From Micromonospora sp. NBC_01813 (lineage in GTDB: Bacteria; Actinomycetota; Actinomycetes; Mycobacteriales; Micromonosporaceae): 64,000 nt of DNA. Position 1 is the first letter of the stretch, and each line of letters opens with the position of its first letter. Both the position numbers and the translations under genes were made by a program. Below, one piece after another: positions 16,777 to 57,923 of the stretch. The DNA is taken from positions 4,029,001 to 4,093,000 of the forward strand of contig NZ_CP109067.1 in assembly GCF_035917335.1 (NCBI RefSeq), given 5' to 3'. The notes under the pieces were generated by a model, which was given only the letters and a program-made list of their open reading frames with translations, made no database searches and was not told where the DNA came from.

Positions 16777-17706
16777 GTGGCCACCGTACGTCAGTGGTCC
16801 GGCAAGGAGGTCCGGGCACTACGCGAAGCGCGCCGGATGAGCGTTCGTGACTTCGCCGAGCACCTAGGCGTGTCAGACCGCATGGTGTCCAAATGGGAAG
16901 CTGGTGGTCGGTCGATCAAGCCACGCCCGATGAACCAGGCTGCGCTCGACACCTCACTGGAGCGTGCCGGCGCTGATGCGCAGGCACGCTTCGCGCTGCA
17001 GATCGACGCGTCAGCCATCGCATCGATACCCGAGCAGGCTCCGCCGCCTGAGACGGCTCATGCGCGTCATCCGGCGGACGGCAAGCCGATGGCGCTGGTT
17101 GACGCAGGTGTGTACCTCAGCGGCGCGAACAACGAACCAGTCTGGCTTCCCGCCTTCTACATCGACGTCCATCCCACGACGAACGCGGACTATTCGCGGT
17201 TCATCGACGCGACCGGCTACAAGCCTCCCGGCCACTGGCCGGGAGGCATCTGCCCCACGGAACTGGCCGACCACCCAGTGGTCTTCGTGACCTGGAACGA
17301 CGCGAGCGCCTATGCACGCTGGGCGGACAAGAGCCTGCCGAGCTCGCAGCAGTGGGAGAAGGCGGCGCGAGGCCCCGCCGGCAGCGTCTACCCGTGGGGC
17401 AACCAGCCAACCCCCGCCAAGTGCAACGTCCGCGAAGGCGGCATCAGGGACACCACACCCGTCGGCCGCTACCAGAGCGGAACGAGCATCTACGGGGTCT
17501 TCGACCTGTGTGGCAACGTCTGGGAGTGGTGTCGGACCGAGACCACACCGGGCCGCTTCGAACTCAAGGGAAGCGCCTTCACCAGCGGCTTTGAACGAGC
17601 CACGCCCTCGAACTTCAACGACGCCGACGCCTCGATGCTCGACGACGACACCGGATTCCGCTGCGTCGTGGTGGCCGACGCCATGCAGGCACTACTGGCT
17701 GCCTGA
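16777..17706 (+). CDS. XRE HTH fused to SUMF1/EgtB-type domain
   Basis: 309 residues. Residues 8-50 form an XRE HTH (VRALREARRMSVRDFAEHLG, then VSDRMVSKWEAGG). After a linker of about 50 residues comes a formylglycine-generating-enzyme-like domain: MALVDAGVYLSGANNEPVWL, HPTTNADYSRFIDATGY, HPVVFVTWNDASAYARWADK, LPSSQQWEKAARG, YGVFDLCGNVWEWC and the terminal DTGFRCV. The Cys pair and RGGSW motif of active FGE are not seen, so it may be a ligand-binding or non-heme-iron version. GAGAGGAG precedes the GTG. It follows the aminotransferase and may sense its product. Confidence 0.85.
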   Translation: MATVRQWSGKEVRALREARRMSVRDFAEHLGVSDRMVSKWEAGGRSIKPRPMNQAALDTSLERAGADAQARFALQIDASAIASIPEQAPPPETAHARHPADGKPMALVDAGVYLSGANNEPVWLPAFYIDVHPTTNADYSRFIDATGYKPPGHWPGGICPTELADHPVVFVTWNDASAYARWADKSLPSSQQWEKAARGPAGSVYPWGNQPTPAKCNVREGGIRDTTPVGRYQSGTSIYGVFDLCGNVWEWCRTETTPGRFELKGSAFTSGFERATPSNFNDADASMLDDDTGFRCVVVADAMQALLAA

Positions 17707-17784
17707 TGCATGGCTCGCCCCCAGGACTCCCGGTCGCAGGGGTGATCAGGTGGGCGCTGTCCCTCCGGCGGCACGGCTCACCGT

Positions 17785-17850
17785 TCACCGACGACGGTGG
17801 GACGCGCCGTCGAAGCGGTGGCGGGCGATGGTGAACGGTTCGCCGGCTTG
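17785..17850 (-). pseudogene. remnant of a second GPP34 gene (C-terminus)
   Basis: The minus strand encodes AGEPFTIARHRFDGASHRRR followed by a stop, closely matching the end of the GPP34 protein at 13771 (SELFTIARHRLDGAAHRRR). Homology fades within about 70 bp. This marks the left edge of the lower-GC island and suggests deletion or replacement of a GPP34 paralogue. Confidence 0.6.
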
Positions 17851-17945
17851 GCCAGCACCGGGGTTTCCTCCAGCATACGGCAGCAACCGTGCCCCTCATT
17901 CTGGCCGGAATACGATACAACTCACCACAGCAGCAACTGCTTATC

Positions 17946-19145
17946 CTAGGACAAAGGTACGCTCTGTAGAGATACGACAAGCTCTTTCATCGCCCGATCG
18001 CGCTCTATCTGCATAGCGGACTCCCGATACTTCATGCCAACATCAATTGCCTTCGTGACACCAGCAGATGCGAGGGCGGCCACTAGGCTACCGCCAGCCA
18101 TGTAGCCAGCAGCCGCCGAAACCACCGAAACACCAAAACCTGTCACGCCAGTCTTAAGGGCCGCGAGTGCCGGCGACCTATTGGCCACCTTCTGCAGTTG
18201 CTCCATATCCGGAGCGAGTTCCGCACTGATCACACGTCGAGCTTCTACCATTTCGTGTGGTTCCGAAGCCTCACTCAGAGAAATGCACCGAAGAGCCTTA
18301 GCCAAGTTGTGCCGGAAATCCCCGAAGGCACCTTCCTGTTGCCGCACTGCGACCAGCGCATTGATGTCCGGCGAGAAACTTGGCACATAGAGATTCGCTA
18401 GCTGAAAAAGGACCGCATGCCTTCGATCGACTCCAGGATGAACTCCTTCGATAACCTTTTGCAACAACAGTCGCTCCGCCTCACTTCGCAACATCCGGTG
18501 GACTTGATTCTGCCAAAGTCGAGCGAAGAATGAAAAACTGTAAATATCTTCAAGAAATCCTATAGTTGCAGACCGCAAAACCCTTCCCCGCTCGGGACCA
18601 GGAAGTTCTCTAATGTACGGCCAGCTACCCAATTGCTTAAAGTACTCTAAATTTCCGGCAATAGCAGCACTCTCGAGAATCGGCGAGAAGTCGCGCACCA
18701 CCCCGGCCGACGGATGGACACTCGCCGACGTAACAGGCTTGAAGTGCAGCGCACCCTCAGCGAAAAGTGGCCTAACGGATACTAGCCACTGCCCAACCGA
18801 CTCCCGCGTCTCCCGATCGCCGATTGCTAGATACAGCCCAGGATCATCCATGATGACCTCGTGAGCATAAAGAAGTGCCACCGTAGCGTAGCGAGTGAGA
18901 CTAACGATGGGATCGAATGGACCGAACACATCGATGGGGTTTGTGCGGATTATCGGCCTTAAGTTTCCAGATGGAAGCGTCGGCATTCGACTTAGATCTG
19001 AACCAAGGTAGTAGAATTTACGAAACTCATCCAAGTGATCCCTCGGGGCCTCGACAATCCTTTCTAATAGTCCTCGATCGAGCTCGTCGCCCCAAAATTC
19101 CGAGATAATCCTATACGGGTCAGTACGTTCAATATCTGAAGCCAT
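17946..19145 (-). CDS. unrecognised 399-residue protein in the island
   Basis: Starts at ATG 19145 with GGAGG about 14 bases upstream. It has a mainly helical body (DPYRIISEFWGDELDRGLLE, SLTRYATVALLYAHEVI) and a C-terminal hydrophobic, Gly/Ala-rich segment (about 333-370, GFGVSVVSAAAGYMAGGSLV) that may enter a membrane, followed by a short charged helix. No known domain was recognised. Its base composition is clearly lower in GC than the housekeeping genes, and it stands next to an IS630 element and near a Qat cassette. A defence or toxin role is possible but only by location. Confidence 0.65.
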   Translation of the reverse strand: MASDIERTDPYRIISEFWGDELDRGLLERIVEAPRDHLDEFRKFYYLGSDLSRMPTLPSGNLRPIIRTNPIDVFGPFDPIVSLTRYATVALLYAHEVIMDDPGLYLAIGDRETRESVGQWLVSVRPLFAEGALHFKPVTSASVHPSAGVVRDFSPILESAAIAGNLEYFKQLGSWPYIRELPGPERGRVLRSATIGFLEDIYSFSFFARLWQNQVHRMLRSEAERLLLQKVIEGVHPGVDRRHAVLFQLANLYVPSFSPDINALVAVRQQEGAFGDFRHNLAKALRCISLSEASEPHEMVEARRVISAELAPDMEQLQKVANRSPALAALKTGVTGFGVSVVSAAAGYMAGGSLVAALASAGVTKAIDVGMKYRESAMQIERDRAMKELVVSLQSVPLS

Positions 19146-19331
19146 ACCACCGGACCTCGCCTCCGTCTCGGCGCGAATGCGTCGCCGTCCCAACGGTAAC
19201 AACCTGGAGCAACATCGGTTCTCGCTCGCTTCGCCCAATCCTTCCGCCCGTACGCGAATACTCGGCGGTCGAGGTTGCAATTTGCCGGCGCAGGCGCCTT
19301 CGTTTGTCACAATCCGGGTGCAATCAGCCAC

Positions 19332-20425
19332 CTAGTGTCCCGTGTCTGAAGTCTTTTCGCGGTTTGCTTTGGTGAGGATCTGGTCGGCGGTTTTGGTCCA
19401 GGCGAAGGGTTTGCATCGCTGGTTGTAGCCGTCGATGAACGCACGGATCGCGGCGGTCAGGTCGGGCACGGAGGTGAAGGTGCCGCGGCGGATGGCCTGG
19501 CGGGTGATGATCCCGAAGAAGATCTCCACCATGTTCAGCCAGGAACAGCTGGTGGGGGTGAAGTGCATGGTGATGCGGGGGTGGCGGGCCAGCCAGGCTT
19601 TGACGTTCGGGTGGTTGTGGGTGGCGTAGTTGTCGACCACGACGTGCAGTTGCACTCGGGGGTGGGCCTTGGCGACCTGCTTGAGGAAGGCCAGGAACTC
19701 CACGTTGGAGTGCCGGTCGAAGCAGGCGTCGGCGCTGACGCGTCCGGTGGCCACCTCCAGGGCGGCGAACAGGGTGGTGGTGCCGTTGCGGACGTAGTCG
19801 TGGGTCCGGCGCTCCGCCAGTCCGGGGCGGAGCGGCAGGATCGGCGCGGTCCGGTCGAGCGCCTGGACCTGGGACTTCTCGTCGACCGAGACCACCACCG
19901 CGCCGGCCGGCGGGTTCAGGTACAGGCCGACCACGTCCCGGATCCTGGCTTCCAGTTGAGGATCGGTGGAGAACTTGAACGTCTCCGACCGGTGCGGCTG
20001 CAGGCCCCATTTGCGCCAGACACGTGAAACGGTGGCGAAGCTGACCGGGGTTCCTCCCGGCGCATCTGGTCGGCCAGCAGCCGCGCCGACCAGTGCGTCA
20101 CTCCGAGGTCCGCTGGCGGCCGCCCGTCGTCGGAGACGGTACGCACCACGATGGCGACTTCGTCGACCACCGACGGTCGGCCCGAGCGCCCCAGGTCGGC
20201 CAACGCGTCGATGCCGCCGGCGTCGTAGCGGTTACGCCACGCCAGGACCGTCGGGGTCGACACCCCGACCTGACGGCCGATCGCCGCGTTCGGCATACCT
20301 TCAGCGGCCAGTAGAACAATCCTCGCCCGCTGCGCCAGACCCGCCGCTGCCTGTGATGACCGGGTCAGTGCGCGTAGACGAGACCCATCTCCCGGGCGAA
20401 GCGCCAAAGGCGCGGCAACAGACAT
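19332..20425 (-). pseudogene. IS630 transposase, frameshifted
   Basis: The first frame (20425 leftward) has the HTH part: LAQRARIVLLAAEGMPNAAI and VSTPTVLAWRNRYDAGGIDA. After QMRREE near 20050 the sense moves to another frame, VSFATVSRVWRKWGLQPHRS, and continues into VVSVDEKSQVQALDRTAP, VVDNYATHNHPNVKAWLA and HFTPTSCSWLNMVEIFF, the DDE catalytic core. The final stop TAG (19332-19334) uses the TA target duplication. A single frameshift may be a mutation; programmed frameshifting is known in some IS630 members but no clear slippery site was identified. Confidence 0.8.
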
Positions 20426-20477
20426 GCCTCATTGTCCCGCACCTAAACCACAAAACCACTTACGACACGCGACACTA
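19333..20477. mobile_element. IS630-family insertion sequence
   Basis: About 1.14 kb with imperfect terminal inverted repeats: GTGTCCCGTGTCTGAAGT (from 19335) and the complement of ACTTACGACACGCGACAC (to 20475), which agree at most positions. Both ends are flanked by TA (19333-19334 and 20476-20477), the target duplication typical of IS630/Tc1 elements. It carries one frameshifted transposase on the minus strand. Confidence 0.8.
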
Positions 20478-20480
20478 GCG

Positions 20481-20778
20481 AGTGCCGGAGCAGCAGCTTC
20501 CGGTGGGGCCACCAGGCCGGTCAAGCGGATCGGAGCGCCCGACGGGCCAACGCCAACACCGACCCGAACAGCGACTCCCGCAGATAGACCAGGGCGTCGT
20601 CATCGGCGCACACCCAACGAAGGCCACCATGCCGCAGCTCCGGCACCTCCCGACGCAACGCTACCAACGCCCGGTACACCCCGAACGTCGCACCGTCCCA
20701 CGAGCCCGGCCGATCCCACGGCATCGGCGTACGCGACGACCCTCGCGGTGTCGCCCCGCAACCCAACTCATCCCTGGC
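20481..20778 (-). pseudogene. internal fragment of a GH13 amylase gene
   Basis: About 300 bp closely matching 27764-28068 inside the intact GH13 gene, in the same orientation. It encodes SSRTPMPWDRPGSWDGATFG and RREVPELRHGGLRWVCADDD. A 7-bp deletion relative to the intact gene (around 20535) breaks the frame, and both gene ends are missing. It starts three bases after the IS630 element and stops where the lower-GC DNA begins. Confidence 0.8.
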
Positions 20779-20982
20779 AAGAGGGCGCGCGTCCACTGCA
20801 CAGAACTGTTCTACCGAGTAGAGTGCGTCTAAACACCTGTCCGTACATGCAGATGATCGTTGCCTTGTTCCTATATAAAGGAATTCCTTTCTCTCGCGGA
20901 GGTCTCCAAGTGCAACGCATCGAAATTTTGCCTCACCTTTCGCATCTTGACAAACATCAACGAACACCACAATGAAATCCTA
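20779..20982. other. spacer downstream of the qat operon
   Basis: About 200 bp of lower-GC DNA between the amylase fragment and the qatD stop. No gene or clear terminator was seen. Confidence 0.4.
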
Positions 20983-21729
20983 TTAGTTATCCGCCCATTC
21001 TTCATCGACGAGCAATAACCTCTCGTTATTACGGATGACGCGCTCAGCCTCGGCGCGATCTGTGGTCCAGACATCCGAGAGTGATTGACACGCCAACCCG
21101 ATATCCCAGGGATGCAAGGCGGTTCGTCTAAGCTGCGCAAATGGTCCATCGGTTTCGAGAAGCACTCGGTCGCGGGGCATTGCGGCTACGAGCGCTTTTC
21201 CCTTAGCGCCGCCGAGCATCGCAGGCCCCACACTGAACCAGCAGCCGCGTTCGACCGCTCGCTGAAGCTCGGAGTGGGTGCCGGAGAACCAATGTAGGAC
21301 AGGAAAGCGGACACTATCGAACTTGTCGAGCAAGTCGAGGACTGGTGTTGCTGCCCGTCGGCTATGTATCGATATAACCTTGTTTCCCGCCTCACTGCAA
21401 GCGTGAAGTATGTGCTCGAAAACCTTTTTCTGCTGCGCCCAGGTCGATCTGAGTACGGGAGAACCGTCGAGACCAACTTCTCCAACGAAGCGAGTCTCAC
21501 CAAGATGCAGTTCAAATTTCTTAAGCTCATTTTTGCGTTCCTCCGCCAACTGCGGGTGCAGACCGAGGGCCGTCCTGATAACCGAACGCCCGCGCGCCAG
21601 TCGCAACGTTCCCACCCACGCCGAAGGCGTGGTTGTTACGGACAGCACGCCGATCCCCATGCGTTGAGCTTGGTCAATTATTTCAGCTGGCCGAGGATAT
21701 AGGTCGAGATGACAGTGAAAATCGATCAT
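20983..21729 (-). CDS. qatD: QatD, TatD-like metallohydrolase of the Qat defence system
   Basis: 248 residues of the TatD nuclease fold: MIDFHCHLDL (metal histidines H5 and H7), FVGEVGLDGSP (metal glutamate), IHSRRA, LHWFSGTHSEL and LLETDGPFAQL. It is more divergent than the housekeeping TatD at 57036. In the QatABCD anti-phage system the fourth gene encodes a TatD-like DNase; here it is the last gene of an operon, its ATG overlapping the qatC stop by ATGA. It probably cuts nucleic acid during phage attack, but mechanism is not settled. Confidence 0.88.
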   Translation of the reverse strand: MIDFHCHLDLYPRPAEIIDQAQRMGIGVLSVTTTPSAWVGTLRLARGRSVIRTALGLHPQLAEERKNELKKFELHLGETRFVGEVGLDGSPVLRSTWAQQKKVFEHILHACSEAGNKVISIHSRRAATPVLDLLDKFDSVRFPVLHWFSGTHSELQRAVERGCWFSVGPAMLGGAKGKALVAAMPRDRVLLETDGPFAQLRRTALHPWDIGLACQSLSDVWTTDRAEAERVIRNNERLLLVDEEWADN

Positions 21730-23003
21730 GCTAGGCCGTACTTCGCGTGCAGCCGGCCAAGTTCGTCAACGCCTCGTTGAAGCATCGCGCGTAGCGCTGC
21801 CTTGTTCGTGATTCGCGGGGAGCCTAGTGTCGGCCCGAGCCACCTATCTAGCCCATCTTCGGCTACCACTAACCGAGCCATGGCCACAGAACGCACATCG
21901 TCGAAAGCAGCGTGGTCCTCATCCGACCGACCGAGGTCTGTGTATACATATTTCGTGAGATCCTCTCGACCCCAAGCCACGAAGGCGGCGCGGCGAATCT
22001 GGCACGGAAGGCACCGTCCGCAATGCGTATAGTTGAATCGCTGGAAGCGCCCGCAACTGGTCGAGACTGCGGCTTCGGCGCCCAGAAGGGTTTGGTCCAG
22101 ACACGCACGAAGCATATCGCCCTTAGTCTTCTCAGCGTATGGATTGGTGATCATGACACGAAGTCCAACTCCGTCAAGGATGTCCTGCATGCGCGCAAGG
22201 AACTCCGGATGGGCGGTGCGCGTACTGAGACTTCCGATCCGCGCATAGGTGAGCGGGGGATTGATCGCGATAAACCCGTTCTCACAGACATATAGCGGAA
22301 TAGTGTCACCGTCGTGGTAGCGCTCTGTTGCTGTAGCGGCCAACACGGCGAATGCCAAGAAAATAAGCGAACGTGAACGTTGAGATGTTTCCTTAAGGCC
22401 GCGTCGAGTGCTTGCGTTGTGGTTGACCGATATATATTCAAGGCCGCCACCGATGATCCCCGCGAACCTGCGTTGCTTGTCGGCGTCTCCGCGCACCGTC
22501 TGGCTGACAGCGAAGAGGCGTCGCCCTTCGGCGCTAAGGTCAATGGCGCCGATCAGGGAGTCAAGTCCTCCTGACAGCAGCACAATCGCATCAGTGTCTG
22601 GACGGCGCGGCTTCTTCGGGGCATCCGGCAGAACACCGCCGTCACGAAAGGCAACCTGCCATCGGTCAGTAGTCAGGAATGCAAGCGCCGAAGACAAGGA
22701 GTCTGCGAAGAGATCCCAGCGTTTCGAATCGTGCAGGGCCACGTCGAGTCGAATCTCACGAGTCCATCCATCCGGACTCTTGGCTCGCTTCGTCGCTCCG
22801 TCGGCGACGACAACAGAGAGCGCGATTGCCAGCAAATCCCACGCGGCCGGGTCTGGGAGCAAAGCTCGCCGCCGTATCGTCGCAGCGGCTGACGCGCCAG
22901 CACTTGCCACATCGCGTGAAGCGGCACGTCCGAATAGGACGATTGGTGTCGACATCTCATCGGCGACCGGGAGAGCAGCCCTGGGGCCGCTTACGAATCT
23001 CAT
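21726..23003 (-). CDS. qatC: QatC, QueC-like protein of the Qat defence system
   Basis: 425 residues. A PP-loop SGGLDSLIGAIDL (about 144-156) and a C-terminal zinc cluster CGRFQRFNYTHCGRCLPC (C317, C328, C331, C334) are those of QueC 7-cyano-7-deazaguanine synthases. A long N-terminal extension of about 135 residues is not found in QueC. QatC is the QueC-like member of QatABCD; no other queuosine genes are nearby, which supports a defence rather than tRNA role. It overlaps qatB and qatD by four bases on each side. Confidence 0.9.
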   Translation of the reverse strand: MRFVSGPRAALPVADEMSTPIVLFGRAASRDVASAGASAAATIRRRALLPDPAAWDLLAIALSVVVADGATKRAKSPDGWTREIRLDVALHDSKRWDLFADSLSSALAFLTTDRWQVAFRDGGVLPDAPKKPRRPDTDAIVLLSGGLDSLIGAIDLSAEGRRLFAVSQTVRGDADKQRRFAGIIGGGLEYISVNHNASTRRGLKETSQRSRSLIFLAFAVLAATATERYHDGDTIPLYVCENGFIAINPPLTYARIGSLSTRTAHPEFLARMQDILDGVGLRVMITNPYAEKTKGDMLRACLDQTLLGAEAAVSTSCGRFQRFNYTHCGRCLPCQIRRAAFVAWGREDLTKYVYTDLGRSDEDHAAFDDVRSVAMARLVVAEDGLDRWLGPTLGSPRITNKAALRAMLQRGVDELGRLHAKYGLA

Positions 23004-23812
23004 TTCATGTACTCCTCGAACACGTTGAGTGTTTCGCGGAGTGCTACTGCGGTGAGACGTGCAACGTTCGCCGTAGTAGCAGGTCCGCCTCGTTCGCGGA
23101 TAGATCTGAATGCGGCCGAGACTTCCTGGCTAATAAACTCTCGGACCTGCCGCAGGCGTTGTAGACCTGTTGCCGGATCGGGTGCCTTGCCCAGAATCGT
23201 CTTCTGCACGTCGAGACAAAAGCGACCGTAGACATCGAGTGCTGCGTATCGCTCGATAACGAACTCTCGTTGTACGTCAGTGAGTGCGAGCAGGTCGGCA
23301 TCCGGGTAACGAACAAGAAGGTCAGTGAGAGCATCACGAACCGCACGGCGCGAGGATTCTCCGTCCTGCGTCCCGTTTAGAGGACTCGCAGCGTCAACGA
23401 TGGCATCCAACACGACGTTGACGTCGCTACCGCTTGCGAGCGCTACGTCCCTGAGTGACTGTCCGTCTGGTGTGCTTCCTGACTGGAGTACCCCGTTCAG
23501 CCGGCCCGCCGTTGCTGCCGTGCTACCGAGACGGCGGCTCATCGTATTGCTGCCGCCGTAGCCAGTTCTCACGTAGTGGCCAAGCGCTCGTCGCAGGTCG
23601 CGACTGTCACCTGAACGTACGAACCCGCCGAGTCCACGGCGCGCATCACGGAAACGACCACGAGGGGCCAGCGGTACTGGCTCCTTCTCTTCGTCAAGAT
23701 CTTCTGGTGGTGGATCTTCGTCTGGCGGTACCGGCGGGTCTATCTCGTCGGCCCATGGTGGCACCAAGGGAACGCCCGGGCCAGGACCGTTGCTACTCTG
23801 CGAGGTTCCCAC
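23000..23812 (-). CDS. qatB: QatB of the Qat defence system
   Basis: 270 residues. A Pro/Asp/Glu-rich disordered N-terminus (PPVPPDEDPPPEDLDEEKEP) is followed by an Arg/Gly-rich stretch (RDARRGLGGFVRSGDSRDLR, GGSNTMSRRLG) and a helical C-terminus. There is no enzyme motif. By operon position between the KAP ATPase and the QueC-like gene it corresponds to QatB, the partner of unknown chemistry. The GTG start lies inside the last 20 bases of qatA, which indicates tight coupling. Confidence 0.82.
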   Translation of the reverse strand: MGTSQSSNGPGPGVPLVPPWADEIDPPVPPDEDPPPEDLDEEKEPVPLAPRGRFRDARRGLGGFVRSGDSRDLRRALGHYVRTGYGGSNTMSRRLGSTAATAGRLNGVLQSGSTPDGQSLRDVALASGSDVNVVLDAIVDAASPLNGTQDGESSRRAVRDALTDLLVRYPDADLLALTDVQREFVIERYAALDVYGRFCLDVQKTILGKAPDPATGLQRLRQVREFISQEVSAAFRSIRERGGPATTANVARLTAVALRETLNVFEEYMK

Positions 23813-25664
23813 TCTGCGCCCGATTCTCGATGACCTTCTTCACTGGACCTCCAACATCTGGCGAATTCTTCCAGCGGGAGAGCACATCAGCCGCCCACGG
23901 AAGAGACGCGATCCTAGGTACAATACTTGGCTCGATCTGCTTGCCTGGACGTTCAATGAGAAAGCCCGCGACCGCAGCGCCCTGCGTCGGATCAGCATTT
24001 GCAACCGCGATGCATGCCTGAAGGATTGGCGGAACACCCCACGCCTGTTCTTGGCGGGCGCGAGCGAGTAAGCGTTCCATGATGATCGCGACCTCTGGGC
24101 GCTGGAGAGCCTGCAGATCGCTTTCCAGCGCCTCCGCTTCTTGAGGGTGCTCCAACAACGCCGTAAGCAATGCTGCGGCTTCTGAGGAAAGCCGGTCGGC
24201 CGACGTGATCAGCGGAGCTTGCTCACGCCCGACGTATAGAGCGCCTCGAAGATCGTCGTCCGCGAAGGCCGGCGGCAGAGCAAGCCACTCGCGAATAAAC
24301 ACGTCATCCCACACGCCTACGGGTTCGTATCCTTGGCCGGCCGCTGCGGCCTCTTCCCACTCGGCAAGGATCCTCGGTTTGCCATCAGGATCGGCGTTGA
24401 CCGCCGACGTCAGTGCCACGTAGGCGGCCTTCGGCGCGAGCCGCTCGAATAGGAGCAGCTTTGCTAGGACCGCCTCGTCCACCCCGACACCTTGGGCAGC
24501 CGAGATCGCCATGCGGATCGACAGTGCGTTGAGGAACCGCTTGATAAGCCGAGGGTTTCCTGCAATGCGGTCAGAGGTCGTCATGAGAGGTGCAAGACGC
24601 TCGGCAGTATCGAGTCGCGCCGTTAGGGCAGCAGGCAGAGACACGCCGCAGTTCGCGATGTAGTTCTTGTCGACACGCTTTCCCTTCCAGGATTCTCGGA
24701 GTTGTGATGCAATTGCGATTCGCAACGCATCCTTTTCCTCGCTGCCGAGTTCACTGTTTTCAATGAACAGCATCATCATATATGCGCGCACCTCTTGGGT
24801 GCCGAGCGCCGGGACACGAATGGGTATCTGGACGAGTTTATCGAAATAGTTTGTGACTAGCGTTTCGTCATCAAGTCCGCGAAAGTGCTTTTTAACAGCG
24901 TGCTTAATCATTCCGTCGTCGGCGGCAATGACAAAAGCGGTGTTCTTAAGGAACAAGAATAGACGGATTGCTTCGAGCGTTGAGATTGTCGTATCCGGAA
25001 GGCAACGATCGAGGTCATCGATGAGCACCACCAAGGTGACATCGATATGCGCCAGCGCATCCTCGAACGAGTCACGAAGAGCTTGTATCTCCTTAGGGGG
25101 CGAGAACTCCTGCTTGGGATCGAGGAGGGCACGCCCCGTGGCCGCGACTGTGGATGCGAACGAGCCGGCGTTCTTCAGGTCATCCTCGGTAATATCGCCG
25201 TCCGTCACATCTCTGACAACTCCAGCTATCTCGCCAGGTAGGCCAATGGGAGGAAGGCCGAGGGCGACCGACGCCGCTGGCAGTGCGAGCAATTTGGTGA
25301 GGCGAAACCACTTGACGCGGCGCAGAAATTCGCCAGCTTTCTCTATTCCCTTTTTTCTCTTGGTGGCCTCATCGTTCAGTTTGCTCGCAATAACGTCCAG
25401 AAGTGCAGCGCGCGCATCGTCGTATCCTTGATAGAGCCAGGCGTTGAACTCTACGAAGAGATACTTCTCGGGCGCATTCTGCGGTTGACGCTTGTTCAGC
25501 GAGGCTCTCGTAAGCTGAATCATCGACGACTTGCCGGCACCCCAGTCGCCTGACACGCCGATTGACACGGGCCTGTCGTTCGCTCGGACGACCAGCTCCG
25601 CGATCGTGTCGGCCACGCCCTCGAAGTTGAGGAAGTCCCTGTCTGTCTCGTTGTCGGGCCACAT
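23793..25664 (-). CDS. qatA: QatA, KAP-family P-loop ATPase of the Qat defence system
   Basis: 623 residues. KAP NTPase features: GVSGDWGAGKSSM Walker A (37-48), hydrophobic LTKLLALPAASVALGLPPIG (possible membrane contact, about 122-142), LVVLIDDLDRC Walker B (211-221) and AFVIAADDGMIKHAVKKHF sensor region. QatA is the ATPase of QatABCD. ATG 25664 was chosen, with GAAGG about 11 bases upstream; a GTG at 25721 would extend it. First gene of the operon. Its GC is lower than in the flanking housekeeping genes. Confidence 0.9.
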   Translation of the reverse strand: MWPDNETDRDFLNFEGVADTIAELVVRANDRPVSIGVSGDWGAGKSSMIQLTRASLNKRQPQNAPEKYLFVEFNAWLYQGYDDARAALLDVIASKLNDEATKRKKGIEKAGEFLRRVKWFRLTKLLALPAASVALGLPPIGLPGEIAGVVRDVTDGDITEDDLKNAGSFASTVAATGRALLDPKQEFSPPKEIQALRDSFEDALAHIDVTLVVLIDDLDRCLPDTTISTLEAIRLFLFLKNTAFVIAADDGMIKHAVKKHFRGLDDETLVTNYFDKLVQIPIRVPALGTQEVRAYMMMLFIENSELGSEEKDALRIAIASQLRESWKGKRVDKNYIANCGVSLPAALTARLDTAERLAPLMTTSDRIAGNPRLIKRFLNALSIRMAISAAQGVGVDEAVLAKLLLFERLAPKAAYVALTSAVNADPDGKPRILAEWEEAAAAGQGYEPVGVWDDVFIREWLALPPAFADDDLRGALYVGREQAPLITSADRLSSEAAALLTALLEHPQEAEALESDLQALQRPEVAIIMERLLARARQEQAWGVPPILQACIAVANADPTQGAAVAGFLIERPGKQIEPSIVPRIASLPWAADVLSRWKNSPDVGGPVKKVIENRAQSGNLAE

Positions 25665-25681
25665 AACGTACTCGCCTTCTT

Positions 25682-26034
25682 TCAAAAGTGCGGGGCTTCC
25701 TCCCAGAGCACGGGTCGACACTGCGGCAGTCGCTCGGACGTGTGCGCCTCAACCCAGTCGGAGAAAAGAACTGTGATGGGGATGCACTGGCCTGCGGCAT
25801 CCCGATCTCCGCCATCGCAAGTCCGGTCCCTTCCGTGCGGATCTGCACGTCGCTCGCATCGATCCGCGACGTCAGCGCTCGGCCGATGCGGGCATCCGTA
25901 CCCCTTGGCAGCCACAACGAGTCAGTGTTGCAACCCGGCGGCAGGCCTTCAAGAGTCAACTGGCCAGCACGCCTCGCCCTTCGGGTGCCAAGTCCGTGAT
26001 AGTCGGCCATCCGCTTCACCCATGGACCAAGCAT
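25682..26034 (-). pseudogene. frameshifted gene remnant upstream of qatA
   Basis: From 26034 the minus strand reads MLGPWVKRMADYHGLGTRRA through IRTEGTGLAMAEIGMPQ; after about 25795 the sensible frame shifts to QCIPITVLFSDWVEAHTSER and ends WEEAPHF with stop at 25682-25684, 17 bp before qatA. The family is not recognised. It may be a broken gene that once headed the cassette, or chance coding-like sequence. Confidence 0.35.
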
Positions 26035-26142
26035 TACGGTGAGTGATGAGAACGCCGCAGTGTGTGGTCATGTCAACGTCAGGACGTTCGCTCGGCGATT
26101 TCGTGGTGTGATGGCAGGTCAGCACCATGAGGAGCATCGTCA

Positions 26143-26376
26143 GTGTCCGACTATCCGGTTCTCATGCACACCGCCCTGGACGCCACCGGCGCCCGGGCCC
26201 TCGCTGAGTTCTACCGCGAGTTCCTCGAACTGCAATGCCTCCCTGGTGACGAACTTCCGGCTGACGGAACGACCGATGACAAAGACTGGCTCGTCCTGGT
26301 CGACGGGAACGGCAACCGCAAGCTTGCCTTTCAACAGGTGCCTACATTTCGACGCGGCCTTCGATGCTCCAGTTGA
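26143..26376 (+). pseudogene. truncated VOC (glyoxalase-like) protein
   Basis: From GTG 26143 the frame reads SDYPVLMHTALDATGARALA, EFYREFLELQCLPG and DKDWLVLVDGNGNRKLAFQQ, the first two-thirds of a VOC-family metalloprotein repeat. After about 26340 the similarity ends and the frame closes after another dozen residues. The second half is absent, so it is a fragment, probably cut when the adjacent DNA was acquired. Confidence 0.65.
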
Positions 26377-26471
26377 CATAGTCTGCTAACGTCTCTAGGC
26401 GCGACCATCGATCACTCGCAGGGCGCCAGCCATGCGCGAGCGTTGGTTCGCCCATCCTTCGGAGGTCATCG

Positions 26472-27329
26472 GTGTTCTTTCATAACTTTGCATCATGGTC
26501 ACCCACGAGCCTGCTGACATTGGCGGGGATGGCACAGCCAGATGAGTGGGAATATCGACACACGGCCAGCGAACGACCCCTACCGATTCTTCGTAACTAT
26601 ATTGTCTATACTTTCCGGCAGGCCTACCTCCAAGGGCGCGTTCTCGAAGTTGCCGATGTTGACAATAAGAGGTATGCCGCCTTCAATACAGGGCTACTAA
26701 CCCCACATTATGAGCGCATTTTTGGCTTCTTTATTCAACAAACCCGGCAAGAACTCCCTCAGCCATGGTTCCTTCAAGACTTCGTTCGGGAAAGCGATTA
26801 CCGCCTGATGCGGTTTCAAAAATTGCCCGAAAAGGCGACGTACTTTGACGACCCGTCTGATCTGCTCTACGATCCACGGCTGGACCTTAGGGTCCAGTAC
26901 GAGCACATCGTTAACGACCGACTAGAACGGTTTCCGAAGGATCTACAGACGGACGAGCGTCGTCGAACTGAGGCCTTGCGCCAAGCAGTGGCGCATGCGG
27001 TCTTCCGAGTGGAGCAAAATTACAAGACTGCTATCCCGCAATTTCACTGGAATTTGCGGGATGAGAAGGAACCTGGCAAGCTTCAGTTGTTGCTTCCGCT
27101 GTGCCTTGAGGACGTAGGCCGGGCCGATCTAGCCCTCAGCATCGACAAGATGAATGGGGTATATCGTGCAGCCACGGTGCTGACACTGGATATGGCATAC
27201 AACAACGCGCGGCTGATTGCTCGGCCGGACAAAGAGTGGCTGGAGCCACTGCCGGGGGCTAGACGTGATGACTCTGACGAGGCAGAGCCTCAAGAGGCCA
27301 ACCGCGGCTCAACAACGGCCGAATCCTAA
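26472..27329 (+). CDS. DUF3825 domain protein
   Basis: 285 residues from GTG 26472 with GGAGG six bases upstream. The DUF3825 pattern covers most of the length: PLPILRNYIVYTFRQAYLQG, AAFNTGLLTPHYERIFGFF, LPEKATYFDDPSDLLYDPRL, QNYKTAIPQFHW, LQLLLPLCLEDVGRADLALS and AATVLTLDMAYNNARLIARP. DUF3825 proteins are found with RNA-binding and conflict-system domains, but their activity is unknown. It lies beside the Qat cassette on the other strand, in DNA of lower GC; a defence role is possible. Confidence 0.82.
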   Translation: MFFHNFASWSPTSLLTLAGMAQPDEWEYRHTASERPLPILRNYIVYTFRQAYLQGRVLEVADVDNKRYAAFNTGLLTPHYERIFGFFIQQTRQELPQPWFLQDFVRESDYRLMRFQKLPEKATYFDDPSDLLYDPRLDLRVQYEHIVNDRLERFPKDLQTDERRRTEALRQAVAHAVFRVEQNYKTAIPQFHWNLRDEKEPGKLQLLLPLCLEDVGRADLALSIDKMNGVYRAATVLTLDMAYNNARLIARPDKEWLEPLPGARRDDSDEAEPQEANRGSTTAES

Positions 27330-27660
27330 CTGCGAGTTCCGCCTGAGGAACAGTCGAAATTTCCGGGTACTGCTGTCCTCGCCTACGACAAGAGGAAGAG
27401 CCGTCAACGACGAGAACGAGCTGCCGAATTACAGGGGTTGAATATCCACTCCAGGCTACACGCGAATATGCTTCTCACATGCCGCGATTTGCATACTTAG
27501 CCCATCCGATTGCCTGCAAGGGCTGCCTTGCAAGAGTCGCCGCATGACGACAGTCAGCCGCTGCCATACGTCGGTGCCGAGCTGGACGCCAGCCACATCG
27601 ACAGGCGACTTCGATGTGGCTGGCGTCCAGCTTGTGGTCCCCCCGGGGTATGACTTGCTG
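27330..27660. other. 331-bp gap at the right side of the island
   Basis: No gene was recognised. It contains a very stable perfect hairpin at 27580-27632 and appears to mark the return to high-GC backbone DNA. Confidence 0.5.
27580..27632. terminator. perfect 22-bp stem-loop
   Basis: Two 22-base arms (27580-27601 and 27611-27632, inner part GGACGCCAGCCACATCGA) are exact inverse complements around a nine-base loop. It lies between two convergent genes, so it most likely terminates both; a mobile-element end is the alternative. Confidence 0.65.
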
Positions 27661-29544
27661 TCAGGGGAGGCGCCAGAGTTGGAAGGTGGGGCCGTCGGCG
27701 GGCAGGGTCAGGGTGCCGTCAGCCTGCGGGCGCAGCGGGGGTGCGCCGCCGTACAGGTTGACCAGTGCCGGAGCAGCAGCGTCCGGCGGGGCCACCAGAC
27801 CGGTCAACCGCACCGGAGCACCCGACGACCGCCGGGCCAACGCCAACACCGACCCGGACGGCGACTCCCGCAGATAGACCAGAGCGTCGTCATCGGCGTA
27901 CACCCACCGAAGGCCGCCGTGCCGCAGCTCCGGAACCTCCCGACGCAACGCCACCAACGCCCGATACACCCCGAACGTCGCACCGTCCCACGAGTCTGGC
28001 CGATCCCACGGCATCGGCGTCCGCGAACCCTCCCCGTTCTCCCCCCGCAACCCCAACTCGTCCCCGGCGAACACCATCGGCGTCCCCGGCAACGTGAACT
28101 GCAACCCGGCCGCCACCTCCTGCCGACCCGCGTCCCCCACCACCGTCCGAATCCGGGCCGAATCATGCGACCCGAGCAGCTGCCACGAATGCACCAACGA
28201 CCGCCACGACACCAACGCCCCGAAGGCGCGCATCGTCGCCAACGCCGCCGACCCGGACCGGGCCGGCACCCCACCCGGTACGCCGAGGAAGTCCGGCAAC
28301 TCCAACGTCGGTGACCGCAGCCAGCTCCACACCGGCCGGGTGAACCCGGCGTAGTTCATCGTGCCGTGCCAACCATCAGCGTCCAGGTCACGGGTGAAGT
28401 CGTGCCCGTGCTCGGCGACGATCAGCCCATCCGGCCGAGTGTCGGCGACCGCCCGGCGCAGCAAGGCGGCCACCTCCAGGGTGAGCGCGTCGGCACCGCG
28501 CCGGCCAGTCATGTTGGCGACGTCGATCCGCCAACCGTCCAGCCCGTACGGCGGCAGCAGCCACCGCCGCGCCACCGAGGCTGGCCCATCGACGAAGCGT
28601 CGCCGCAGCTCAGCGCTGCCCCAGTTGAGTTTCGGCAGCGACTTCACGCCCAGCCACGATTCATAATCGCCGTCGTCGCCGAAGTAGTACAGCTCCCGCT
28701 CCGCCGACGACACGTCCGACACGGCGGCGGTGAACCACGGGTGGGCGTCGCCGGTGTGGTTGCTGGTGATGTCGCCGAGCAGCCGCCACCCGCGAGCGTG
28801 CACGGCCGCCGACAGCCGCGCCAGGGCCTCGTCCCCGCCGAGCAGCGGGTCGACGTGGTCGAACGCGGCGGCGTCGTACCGGTGATTGGACCGGGCCGGG
28901 AAGATCGGCGTCAGGTAGACGGTGTTGACGCCGAGCCGCTCCAGGTGGTCGAGCCGCTCCCGGATGCCGTCCAGGTCACCGCCGTAGAACTGGGCCGGCG
29001 TCTCCGGCCCGCGCCCGACGACCGGGGTGTCCCAGTCGCACCGGATCGCCCACTCCGGCAGCTCGCGCCCGTCAGCGGCAGCCGACCGGGCGAACCGGTC
29101 CGGGAAGATCTGGTAGATCACCGCGTCGGCGGCCCAGGCCGGCGGCGCATCGTGGGTGACGAGCCGGAAGTCGGTGGCGTCCGGCACGTCGTGGTCGACC
29201 TCGCCGACCCCGGTCAACCAGCGCCGCCCGCCGCCGCCACCAGCAAAGCCGCCGGCAGCAGACCCGCCGCCGGCCAGCAGGAAACGGTACGGCGTGACCG
29301 GGTTACCGGCCTCCACCTCGCCCCGCCACCACACGTCCCCGTTCGGATCCTGCCGGTCGACCACCGCCTCCGTGAAGCGCGGCTCACCGTCGGCTGTGGA
29401 GCGTACCCACAGCTTGTCGACCGGCCGCGCACCCGCCGGCACCCGGACGAAGACCGACACCCGATCACCCAGGTGTACCCCGGCGGCGGCACCCGGCGCA
29501 TACAACGCTGACCCGTCATGGTGTGCCTCGAACAGCTGGCCCAC
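27661..29544 (-). CDS. GH13 alpha-glycosidase, neopullulanase/maltodextrin-hydrolase-like
   Basis: 627 residues. An N-terminal beta domain (to about 125) precedes the GH13 barrel: DAVIYQIFPDRF, GVNTVYLTPIFPARSNHRYD, DITSNHTGD (region I), GWRIDVANMTG (nucleophile Asp), GLIVAEHGHDF (acid Glu) and LLGSHDSARIRT (third Asp). It probably cleaves imported maltodextrins in the cytoplasm. It starts with GTG three bases after the malG stop and so belongs to the malEFG operon. A 300-bp stretch of it is repeated at 20481-20778. Confidence 0.88.
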   Translation of the reverse strand: MGQLFEAHHDGSALYAPGAAAGVHLGDRVSVFVRVPAGARPVDKLWVRSTADGEPRFTEAVVDRQDPNGDVWWRGEVEAGNPVTPYRFLLAGGGSAAGGFAGGGGGRRWLTGVGEVDHDVPDATDFRLVTHDAPPAWAADAVIYQIFPDRFARSAAADGRELPEWAIRCDWDTPVVGRGPETPAQFYGGDLDGIRERLDHLERLGVNTVYLTPIFPARSNHRYDAAAFDHVDPLLGGDEALARLSAAVHARGWRLLGDITSNHTGDAHPWFTAAVSDVSSAERELYYFGDDGDYESWLGVKSLPKLNWGSAELRRRFVDGPASVARRWLLPPYGLDGWRIDVANMTGRRGADALTLEVAALLRRAVADTRPDGLIVAEHGHDFTRDLDADGWHGTMNYAGFTRPVWSWLRSPTLELPDFLGVPGGVPARSGSAALATMRAFGALVSWRSLVHSWQLLGSHDSARIRTVVGDAGRQEVAAGLQFTLPGTPMVFAGDELGLRGENGEGSRTPMPWDRPDSWDGATFGVYRALVALRREVPELRHGGLRWVYADDDALVYLRESPSGSVLALARRSSGAPVRLTGLVAPPDAAAPALVNLYGGAPPLRPQADGTLTLPADGPTFQLWRLP

Positions 29545-57035: not shown

Positions 57036-57923
57036 TCACCACGGCCCGAAGACGCGCTCGCCGGTCGCCGAGATCGCCGCGCAGAGCTCGTCGAGGTCGG
57101 CACCGGTGGTCTCGGCCAACGACCGGACGGTGTGCGGGATCAGGTAGGAGGCGTTCGGCTGGCCCCGGTGCGGCATCGGCGTCAGGTAGGGCGCGTCGGT
57201 CTCGACCAGCAGCTGGTCCAGTGGGGTCACCTGAGCCGCCGCCCGCAGCGCCGCCGCGTTGCCGAACGTCACCGTGCCGGCGAAGCTGAGCACGAAGCCA
57301 CGGCGGACACACTCGGCGGCGAAGTCGGCGTCACCGGAGAAGCAGTGCATCACCACGGTGGCCGGTGCGCCTTCGTCGTCGAGCACCCGCAGCACGTCGG
57401 CGTGGGCGTCCCGGTCGTGGATCACCAACGGTTTGCCGTACCGCTTGGCGATCGCGATGTGCGCCCGGAAGCTGGCCTCCTGCGCCGCCAGCCCGTCCGG
57501 TCCGGTCCGGAAGTGGTCCAGCCCGGTCTCCCCGACGCCGCGTACCCGGTCGGCGGCAGCCAGCGCCTCGATGCCACGCAGCGCCTCGTCCAGGTCGGCC
57601 AACCGGGGCGCCTCGTTGGGGTGCAGCGCCACCGTGGCGACCACCGCCGGCACCCGCGCCGCCAGGTCGGCGCCCCAGCGCGACGAGTCCAGGTCGACGC
57701 CGACCTGGACCAGCCGGTCGACCCCGACCGCAGCGGCCCCGGCGACCAGCGTGGCGACCGGGTCGGCGCCGGCGTCCCGGCCGGGTGCCGCCGGTTCGGC
57801 GACGGTCAGGTCGAGGTGGGTGTGACTGTCGATCACCGGTACCGGCAGCGGCGCGGGCGGCGGCGGGAATTCCCCGGTCCGCCGGGCCGCCCGTTGCCGA
57901 CGGGTTTCAGCTGGCTGAGTCAT
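57036..57923 (-). CDS. tatD: TatD-family deoxyribonuclease
   Basis: 295 residues. [10 protein letters not shown] (metal histidines), [20 protein letters not shown] (metal Glu), [24 protein letters not shown] and [20 protein letters not shown] are full TatD motifs. It is the housekeeping copy, next to metG and rsmA as in many bacteria, and differs from the island copy qatD. Confidence 0.93.

What the first reader, a model, noticed from the sequence alone, without database searches (positions are those of the whole stretch)
20983..25664. Complete QatABCD anti-phage cassette with overlapping genes
Four minus-strand genes in order: KAP ATPase, QatB-like protein, QueC-like PP-loop protein and TatD-like nuclease. 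They overlap by 20, 4 and 4 bases. This is the arrangement known as the QatABCD defence system. QatC lacks any queuosine neighbours and has a long N-terminal extension, and a second, housekeeping TatD is present at 57036.
Basis: partly seen in the sequence, partly recalled or inferred. Interest (0 to 1): 0.75.

Follow-up and report, generated by a model that had tools for sequence, protein, structure and literature searches.

The report
QatABCD phage-defence cassette in variable slot
This is a complete copy of a known bacterial anti-phage system, QatABCD, in a chromosome slot that carries different genes in related bacteria; intact relatives occur in genomes with no recognisable way to make the molecule proposed as the substrate of its key enzyme.

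Summary
Observation confirmed. Window 20983-25664 (-) holds QatA, QatB, QatC and QatD, overlapping by 20, 4 and 4 bases. All four best match Qat models in PADLOC and NCBIfam; QatB, QatC and QatD pass NCBIfam's cut-offs, QatA does not (439 of 600 bits). Residues shown by others to be essential are present. It is a new member of a known kind.

Two things go further. (1) What QatC attaches to QatB is unknown; 7-carboxy-7-deazaguanine (CDG) has been proposed. Of 48 QatC-bearing genomes searched, 18 have neither canonical QueC nor the CDG synthase QueE, and 9 of these lack QueD too, though their Qat genes are intact. In a sample of 393 related genomes, QueC tracks QueE (p 5e-13) and QatC does not (p 0.6). 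So QatC probably does not depend on host-made CDG. Salvage or unknown enzymes are not excluded. (2) The cassette lies in a 10-12 kb slot whose content differs in all six same-genus genomes examined; sampled cargo matched defence models in four of them. Duplicated 3' ends of the adjacent amylase gene mark the slot.

The parts
23793..25664 (-). qatA: KAP-family P-loop NTPase (ATG 25664 preferred; GTG 25721 possible)
   Evidence: PADLOC QatA 2.2e-142; PF07693 4.9e-64; NF041923 438.9 bits, below its cut-off of 600; start context
23000..23812 (-). qatB: begins M-G-T-S (GTG start), disordered-looking tail with LVPPW, partner and probable substrate of QatC
   Evidence: PADLOC QatB 1.4e-31; NF041924 128.8 bits, cut-off 100; aligns from residue 1 with solved QatB chains 9vll_A and 9zee_A
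23801..23812 (-). codons for the MGTS start of QatB (acceptor glycine at position 2)
   Evidence: conserved as M/V-GTS in 76 of 80 related loci
21726..23003 (-). qatC: QueC-like PP-loop protein with N- and C-terminal extensions
   Evidence: PADLOC QatC 1.1e-90; NF041925 298.8 bits, cut-off 280; solved QatC chains 9zee_B 4e-49, 9vlk_A 7e-46
22557..22574 (-). SGGLDS pyrophosphate-binding motif of QatC (residues 144-149)
22215..22226 (-). STRT of QatC (residues 260-263), the Thr-Thr that replaces QueC's CDG-binding Tyr/Asp
   Evidence: aligned to 9zee_B; 80 of 80 related loci
20983..21729 (-). qatD: TatD-family nuclease
   Evidence: PADLOC QatD 2e-90; PF01026 2.4e-49; NF041926 324.1 bits, cut-off 230
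26472..27329 (+). DUF3825 gene, divergent from the Qat operon inside the same slot; role unknown
   Evidence: PF12873 1e-74; no PADLOC match
20481..20778 (-). diverged copy of the 3' part of the amylase gene, downstream edge of the Qat segment
   Evidence: 88% identical to 27764-28068
27661..29544 (-). alpha-amylase family gene, conserved edge of the variable slot
   Evidence: PF00128 2.5e-44; syntenic in six same-genus genomes
15655..27660 (.). variable slot between the conserved block 13781-15654 and the amylase gene (in G445 conservation runs on to 17739)

Best explanation
A genuine, apparently intact QatABCD anti-phage operon acquired into a variable chromosomal slot. Working model: QatB and QatC form the core complex; [quoted passage not shown] the modified QatB then acts against the phage; QatA (DNA-binding KAP NTPase) and QatD (TatD nuclease) set or widen the phage range. 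The molecule joined is probably not CDG made by the host. Shown here: identity, order, intact motifs, slot context, and that intact Qat genes occur in genomes without recognisable CDG synthesis. Shown by others in relatives: the QatBC complex, need for QatB Gly2, for the QatC PP-loop and Thr-Thr, and defence by QatBC alone. Inferred: that this copy works, and all of the chemistry.
For: Family scans; motif alignments to solved QatC and QatB; SGGxDS and STRT in 80 of 80 related loci. CDG point: 18 of 48 QatC genomes lack QueC and QueE, 9 of them QueD too, all 18 with QatA-D and motifs intact; QueE was found in 28 of 30 QueC-positive but 0 of 18 QueC-negative genomes; class sample QueC-QueE p 5e-13, QatC-QueE p 0.6. 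A third QueE model found none in the 20 QueE-negative named genomes. Slot. Function in relatives: PMC13279940.
Against: QatA is under NCBIfam's cut-off. The window's own host has queD and queE, so CDG is available here. The 48 genomes are not a random set and come without completeness figures. Five of the seven QatA-B-C-D loci in the class sample are divergent: QatC under the NCBIfam cut-off, and no PADLOC QatB match for the four partners tested. PTPS is missed in some genomes that have QueC and QueE, so absence by HMM is not proof. 9 of the 18 QueC/QueE-less genomes do have a PTPS protein.
Confidence: 0.75

Rival explanations
1. Authentic QatABCD in which QatC does join CDG to QatB Gly2, as Cap9 does to its CD-NTase. 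Hosts without QueD/QueE get CDG by salvage, from the phage or by an unknown enzyme, or carry copies that do not work.
For: Proposed in PMC13329287 (passages); QatB has the N-terminal glycine tail of a Cap9 substrate (PMC13279940); the window's host has the CDG genes.
Against: 18 of 48 QatC genomes lack QueC and QueE with Qat intact; QatC does not track QueE in the class sample; QueC's CDG-binding Tyr/Asp is replaced, and CDG was not seen in the QatBC crystal soaked with it.
Confidence: 0.2
2. A Qat operon that no longer works, left in an old insertion.
For: The flanking amylase fragment is 12% diverged from the intact copy and the neighbouring transposase lies in two frames.
Against: All four frames are full length with tight overlaps and conserved motifs.
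Confidence: 0.04
3. A metabolic cluster around a true queuosine-type QueC.
For: QatC passes Pfam's QueC cut-off (35.3 bits, cut-off 22).
Against: TIGR00364 20.3 of 150.3 bits while NF041925 QatC 298.8 of 280; Qat partners on both sides; real queC genes lie elsewhere.
Confidence: 0.01

Closest known systems
QatABCD systems of P. aeruginosa and E. coli (QatBC structures, PDB 9zee/9zef and 9vlk/9vll)
   Same: Gene content and order; QatB MGTS start and PxW tail; QatC SGGxDS, STRT, zinc cysteines and extensions
   Different: Distant in sequence (QatC E 4e-49 and 7e-46, QatB 6e-12 and 4e-15); fewer residues between the first and second zinc cysteine; untested host and phages
Actinomycete QatABCD loci, e.g. 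an uncultured Serinicoccus (L006) and Mycolicibacterium sp. P9-22 (L007)
   Same: All four genes and motifs; QatC 79% and 73% identical
   Different: Other genomic sites; neither genome showed QueC or QueE
Type IV CBASS Cap9
   Same: A QueC-family enzyme with a partner that has an N-terminal glycine; Cap9 joins CDG to that glycine (as told in PMC13279940)
   Different: No CD-NTase among the six ORFs scanned; QueC's Tyr/Asp replaced by Thr-Thr in QatC
Canonical QueC
   Same: PP-loop motif and zinc site (PF06508)
   Different: Fails TIGR00364; E. coli QatC does not replace QueC (PMC13329287 passages)

Membership tests
QatABCD | Four genes in order: KAP ATPase, QatB, QueC-like, TatD-like | tested here: met
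QatABCD | Each protein over the curated NCBIfam cut-off for its Qat family | tested here: inconclusive
   QatB 129/100, QatC 299/280, QatD 324/230 pass; QatA 439/600 does not
QatABCD | QatB starts with MGTS after a conserved start, with Pro/Trp in the tail | tested here: met
QatABCD | QatC with SGGxDS, two threonines in place of Tyr/Asp, zinc cysteines and extensions | tested here: met
QatABCD | Protects against phage | not testable with these tools
   Needs plating experiments
Canonical QueC (preQ0 synthase) | Over the TIGR00364 cut-off | tested here: not met
   20.3 bits, cut-off 150.3
Type IV CBASS (Cap9) | CD-NTase beside the QueC-like gene | tested here: not met
   No CBASS model matched the six ORFs scanned other than PADLOC's QueC at 1.2e-5 for QatC; ORFs further off were not all scanned

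The most novel reading that the evidence does not exclude
Probability: 0.5. Interest if true: 0.75.

Novelty: new member of a known kind. Interest (0 to 1): 0.42.

Why it matters
As a Qat locus it is ordinary. Its value is as a pointer. The structure paper I read calls the QatC reaction unresolved (PMC13279940), and a later paper proposes CDG as the group joined (PMC13329287, passages). The survey finds intact QatABCD in genomes without recognisable QueC, QueD and QueE. That predicts Qat should work in E. coli lacking queD or queE, a simple and decisive test, and points mass spectrometry of QatB towards other groups. The slot beside the amylase gene is a place to look for more defence genes in this genus; I searched its literature only lightly.

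Tried and rejected
Viral contigs: QatC residues 27-425 matched 13 stretches by pattern, none a relative; no phage-borne Qat seen. P0011 (643 aa, QatB-like plus QatC-like; one contig of 3.4 kb) looks like a frameshift artefact and was not used.

An integrase att site for the slot was considered. The own fragment and two in G443 share a break at window 28068-28070, but others break at 28183 (G445), 28240 (G441) and 28614 (G446), and no integrase model matched the island ORFs scanned (a sample). Recombination at duplicated gene ends is my guess; unproven.

PTPS absence alone was rejected as a marker: it is missing in G007, G008, G015 and G025, which have canonical QueC (three of them QueE too), and in the control Bacteroides ihuae, which rings for QueC and QueE. 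I rely on QueC and QueE together. At QueC E 1e-15 the same nine control genomes ring for QueC and QueE; at E 1e-3 three more ring for QueC but not QueE: Thermus, Thermotoga, Corynebacterium.

A Cap9 control was considered and not run; canonical QueC served instead. No structure was predicted. That showed five of seven class-sample loci to be divergent, and I lowered the novel case from 0.55 to 0.5 for it.

Full report
Observation. Four minus-strand frames at 20983-25664 overlap by 20, 4 and 4 bases. PADLOC names them QatD, QatC, QatB and QatA at 2e-90, 1.1e-90, 1.4e-31 and 2.2e-142. NCBIfam puts QatD, QatC and QatB over their curated cut-offs and QatA under its own, 439 of 600 bits. ATG 25664 has the better start context for QatA. 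G+C of the cassette is 0.59, of the window 0.68.

Motifs. Aligned to the solved QatC chain 9zee_B, the window's QatC keeps SGGLDS, STRT (by my count T278 and T280 of that chain, as in the paper) and the zinc cysteines. QatB aligns from residue 1 with two solved QatB chains. The public genome scan kept the best 80 of 549 relatives. In these 80 loci SGGxDS, STRT and the zinc pattern are in 80 of 80 QatC; an M/V-G-T/S-S stretch is in 76 of 80 QatB frames; QatA was found in 75 and QatD in 74. Some misses are at contig ends. The six without QatD are five Pseudomonas and one Rhodobacteraceae MAG.

What is known. Gao, Wassarman and Kranzusch (PMC13279940; parts 1-3 of 6 read, passages) show that QatBC suffices against some phages, that QatB Gly2 and the QatC PP-loop and Thr-Thr are essential, and that the reaction is unresolved. 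The terms queD and queE do not occur in its main text. Libby et al. (PMC13329287; passages only) propose carboxydeazaguanylation and show that E. coli QatC does not replace QueC. Searches for QatABCD/QatC (30 of 44 papers listed), deazaguanylation, QatB with anti-phage, and qatABCD with 7-carboxy-7-deazaguanine showed by title no other paper on QatC chemistry apart from the CBASS preprint. Two further QatBC structure papers cited by Gao et al. were not read; one was tried and is not held.

Does Qat need CDG? Named genomes. I gave 50 of the 80 loci to genome searches; 48 genomes were held. PTPS (QueD) is in 35 of 48. Canonical full-length QueC is in 30 of 48. QueE is in 28 of 48 by TIGR03365 at E 1e-6; TIGR04508 adds none. 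Eighteen lack both QueC and QueE; nine of these also lack PTPS and nine have it. QueE was found in 28 of 30 QueC-positive genomes (not in G007 and G009) and 0 of 18 QueC-negative ones (p 3e-11), so the assay sees a real dependency. A third QueE model found nothing in the 20 QueE-negative genomes. All 18 loci have QatA-D, an M/VGTS QatB and STRT. They include isolates such as Agrococcus baldri, Cellulosimicrobium marinum, Mycolicibacterium sp. P9-22 and Rhizobium sp. RU20A. The set is not random: it favours relatives of this QatC and isolates, and carries no completeness figures.

Class sample. Of 393 genomes of the window's class, QatC (E 1e-20) is in 12 with the window's own, QueE in 32 and canonical QueC (E 1e-15) in 15. 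Ten QueE matches are weak (E above 1e-12); four of those lie beside or near a canonical QueC, the rest may be other radical-SAM proteins. Without the own genome, QueE is in 12 of 14 QueC genomes (p 5e-13; one of the 12, G419, is a weak match far from QueC) but in 1 of 11 QatC genomes, against 30 of 381 others (p 0.6). No QueC at E 1e-15 was listed for any of the 11.

Of those 11, seven have QatA, a partner starting MGTS (six) or MGTC (one, G241), QatC and QatD. None of the seven has QueE or PTPS. Limits: G208 and G277 carry QatC of identical sequence, so they are one case; the other five are divergent, with QatC under NCBIfam's cut-off, ST[RKH][TS] in place of strict STRT, and no PADLOC QatB match for the four partners tested. 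G178 and G399, single-contig and rated 100% complete, are of this divergent kind. The remaining four of the 11 (G064, G261, G278, G423) show no QatA or QatD with the window's proteins as queries; three have an MGTS/VGTS partner. All four have PTPS and G423 has QueE.

Of the 16 genomes with QatA-D but no QueC, QueD or QueE (nine named, seven class), 10 also lack TGT, the enzyme that puts deazaguanines into tRNA.

Reading. A genome can keep intact Qat genes without a recognisable supply of CDG. This fits the replacement of QueC's CDG-binding residues and argues that QatC joins something else to QatB. It is an argument from gene content. Salvage, supply by the phage or an unknown enzyme are not excluded, and a single genuine QueE can score low: the window's own is 42 bits by TIGR03365. 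The window's host can probably make CDG: folE-queC-queD-queE and a second queD-queE pair; it has no TGT match.

Setting. The cassette and a DUF3825 gene lie between two copies of the 3' part of an alpha-amylase gene (20481-20778 and 27764-28068, 88%). In six same-genus genomes (G441-G446) the amylase gene and the block 13781-15654 are present on either side (the block is interrupted in G442 and G444, and conservation runs to 17739 in G445), and the DNA between differs; no blastn match to window 20818-27473 was found in any of them. Further amylase 3' copies lie downstream in G443 (two), G446 and G445, and as a tandem in G441. Of 15 slot ORFs scanned with PADLOC, seven matched at E 1e-5: PDC-S39 (G443); PDC-M30A, GajA-like, GajB-like and a generic TPR model (G445); IetA-like (G444); OLD-like (G441). 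Eight did not, among them all four from G446. G442 was not scanned. The slot looks like a hotspot for defence genes; how genes enter it is not established.

Verdict. The added interest lies in the CDG test and, less so, in the slot.

Noticed in passing
window 15655-27660; loci L121-L132: Variable slot beside the amylase gene with repeated amylase 3' ends and different cargo in each of six same-genus genomes; defence-model matches in four.
   Followed up: partly
L099, L102, L104 (G064, G261, G278): QatC-like genes with an MGTS/VGTS partner and no QatA or QatD found nearby with the window's proteins as queries: possible natural QatBC-only systems.
   Followed up: partly
L098, L100, L105, L106, L108 (G241, G178, G296, G399, G428): Divergent QatA-B-C-D loci whose QatC falls under NCBIfam's cut-off; four of the five QatB partners were tested and none matches PADLOC's QatB; partners start MGTS or MGTC.
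   Followed up: partly
L042, L044, L048, L051, L053: Pseudomonas qatABC loci in which no QatD was found.
   Followed up: no
window 13781-15654; loci L130, L131, L132: The conserved block with a GPP34-domain gene is partly duplicated or interrupted in G441, G442 and G444, like the amylase ends; DNA before 13781 also varies.
   Followed up: no
window 19332-20425: DDE_3 and helix-turn-helix pieces of an IS630-like transposase in two overlapping frames just beyond the amylase fragment.
   Followed up: no
G000:C1:4659311-4660383 and 4874534-4875163: A second queD-queE pair and a second queC in a host with no TGT match: the host may use deazaguanines for something other than tRNA.
   Followed up: no
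window 17946-19331 (-): 461-aa protein with no match in Pfam, NCBIfam or PADLOC inside the slot.
   Followed up: partly
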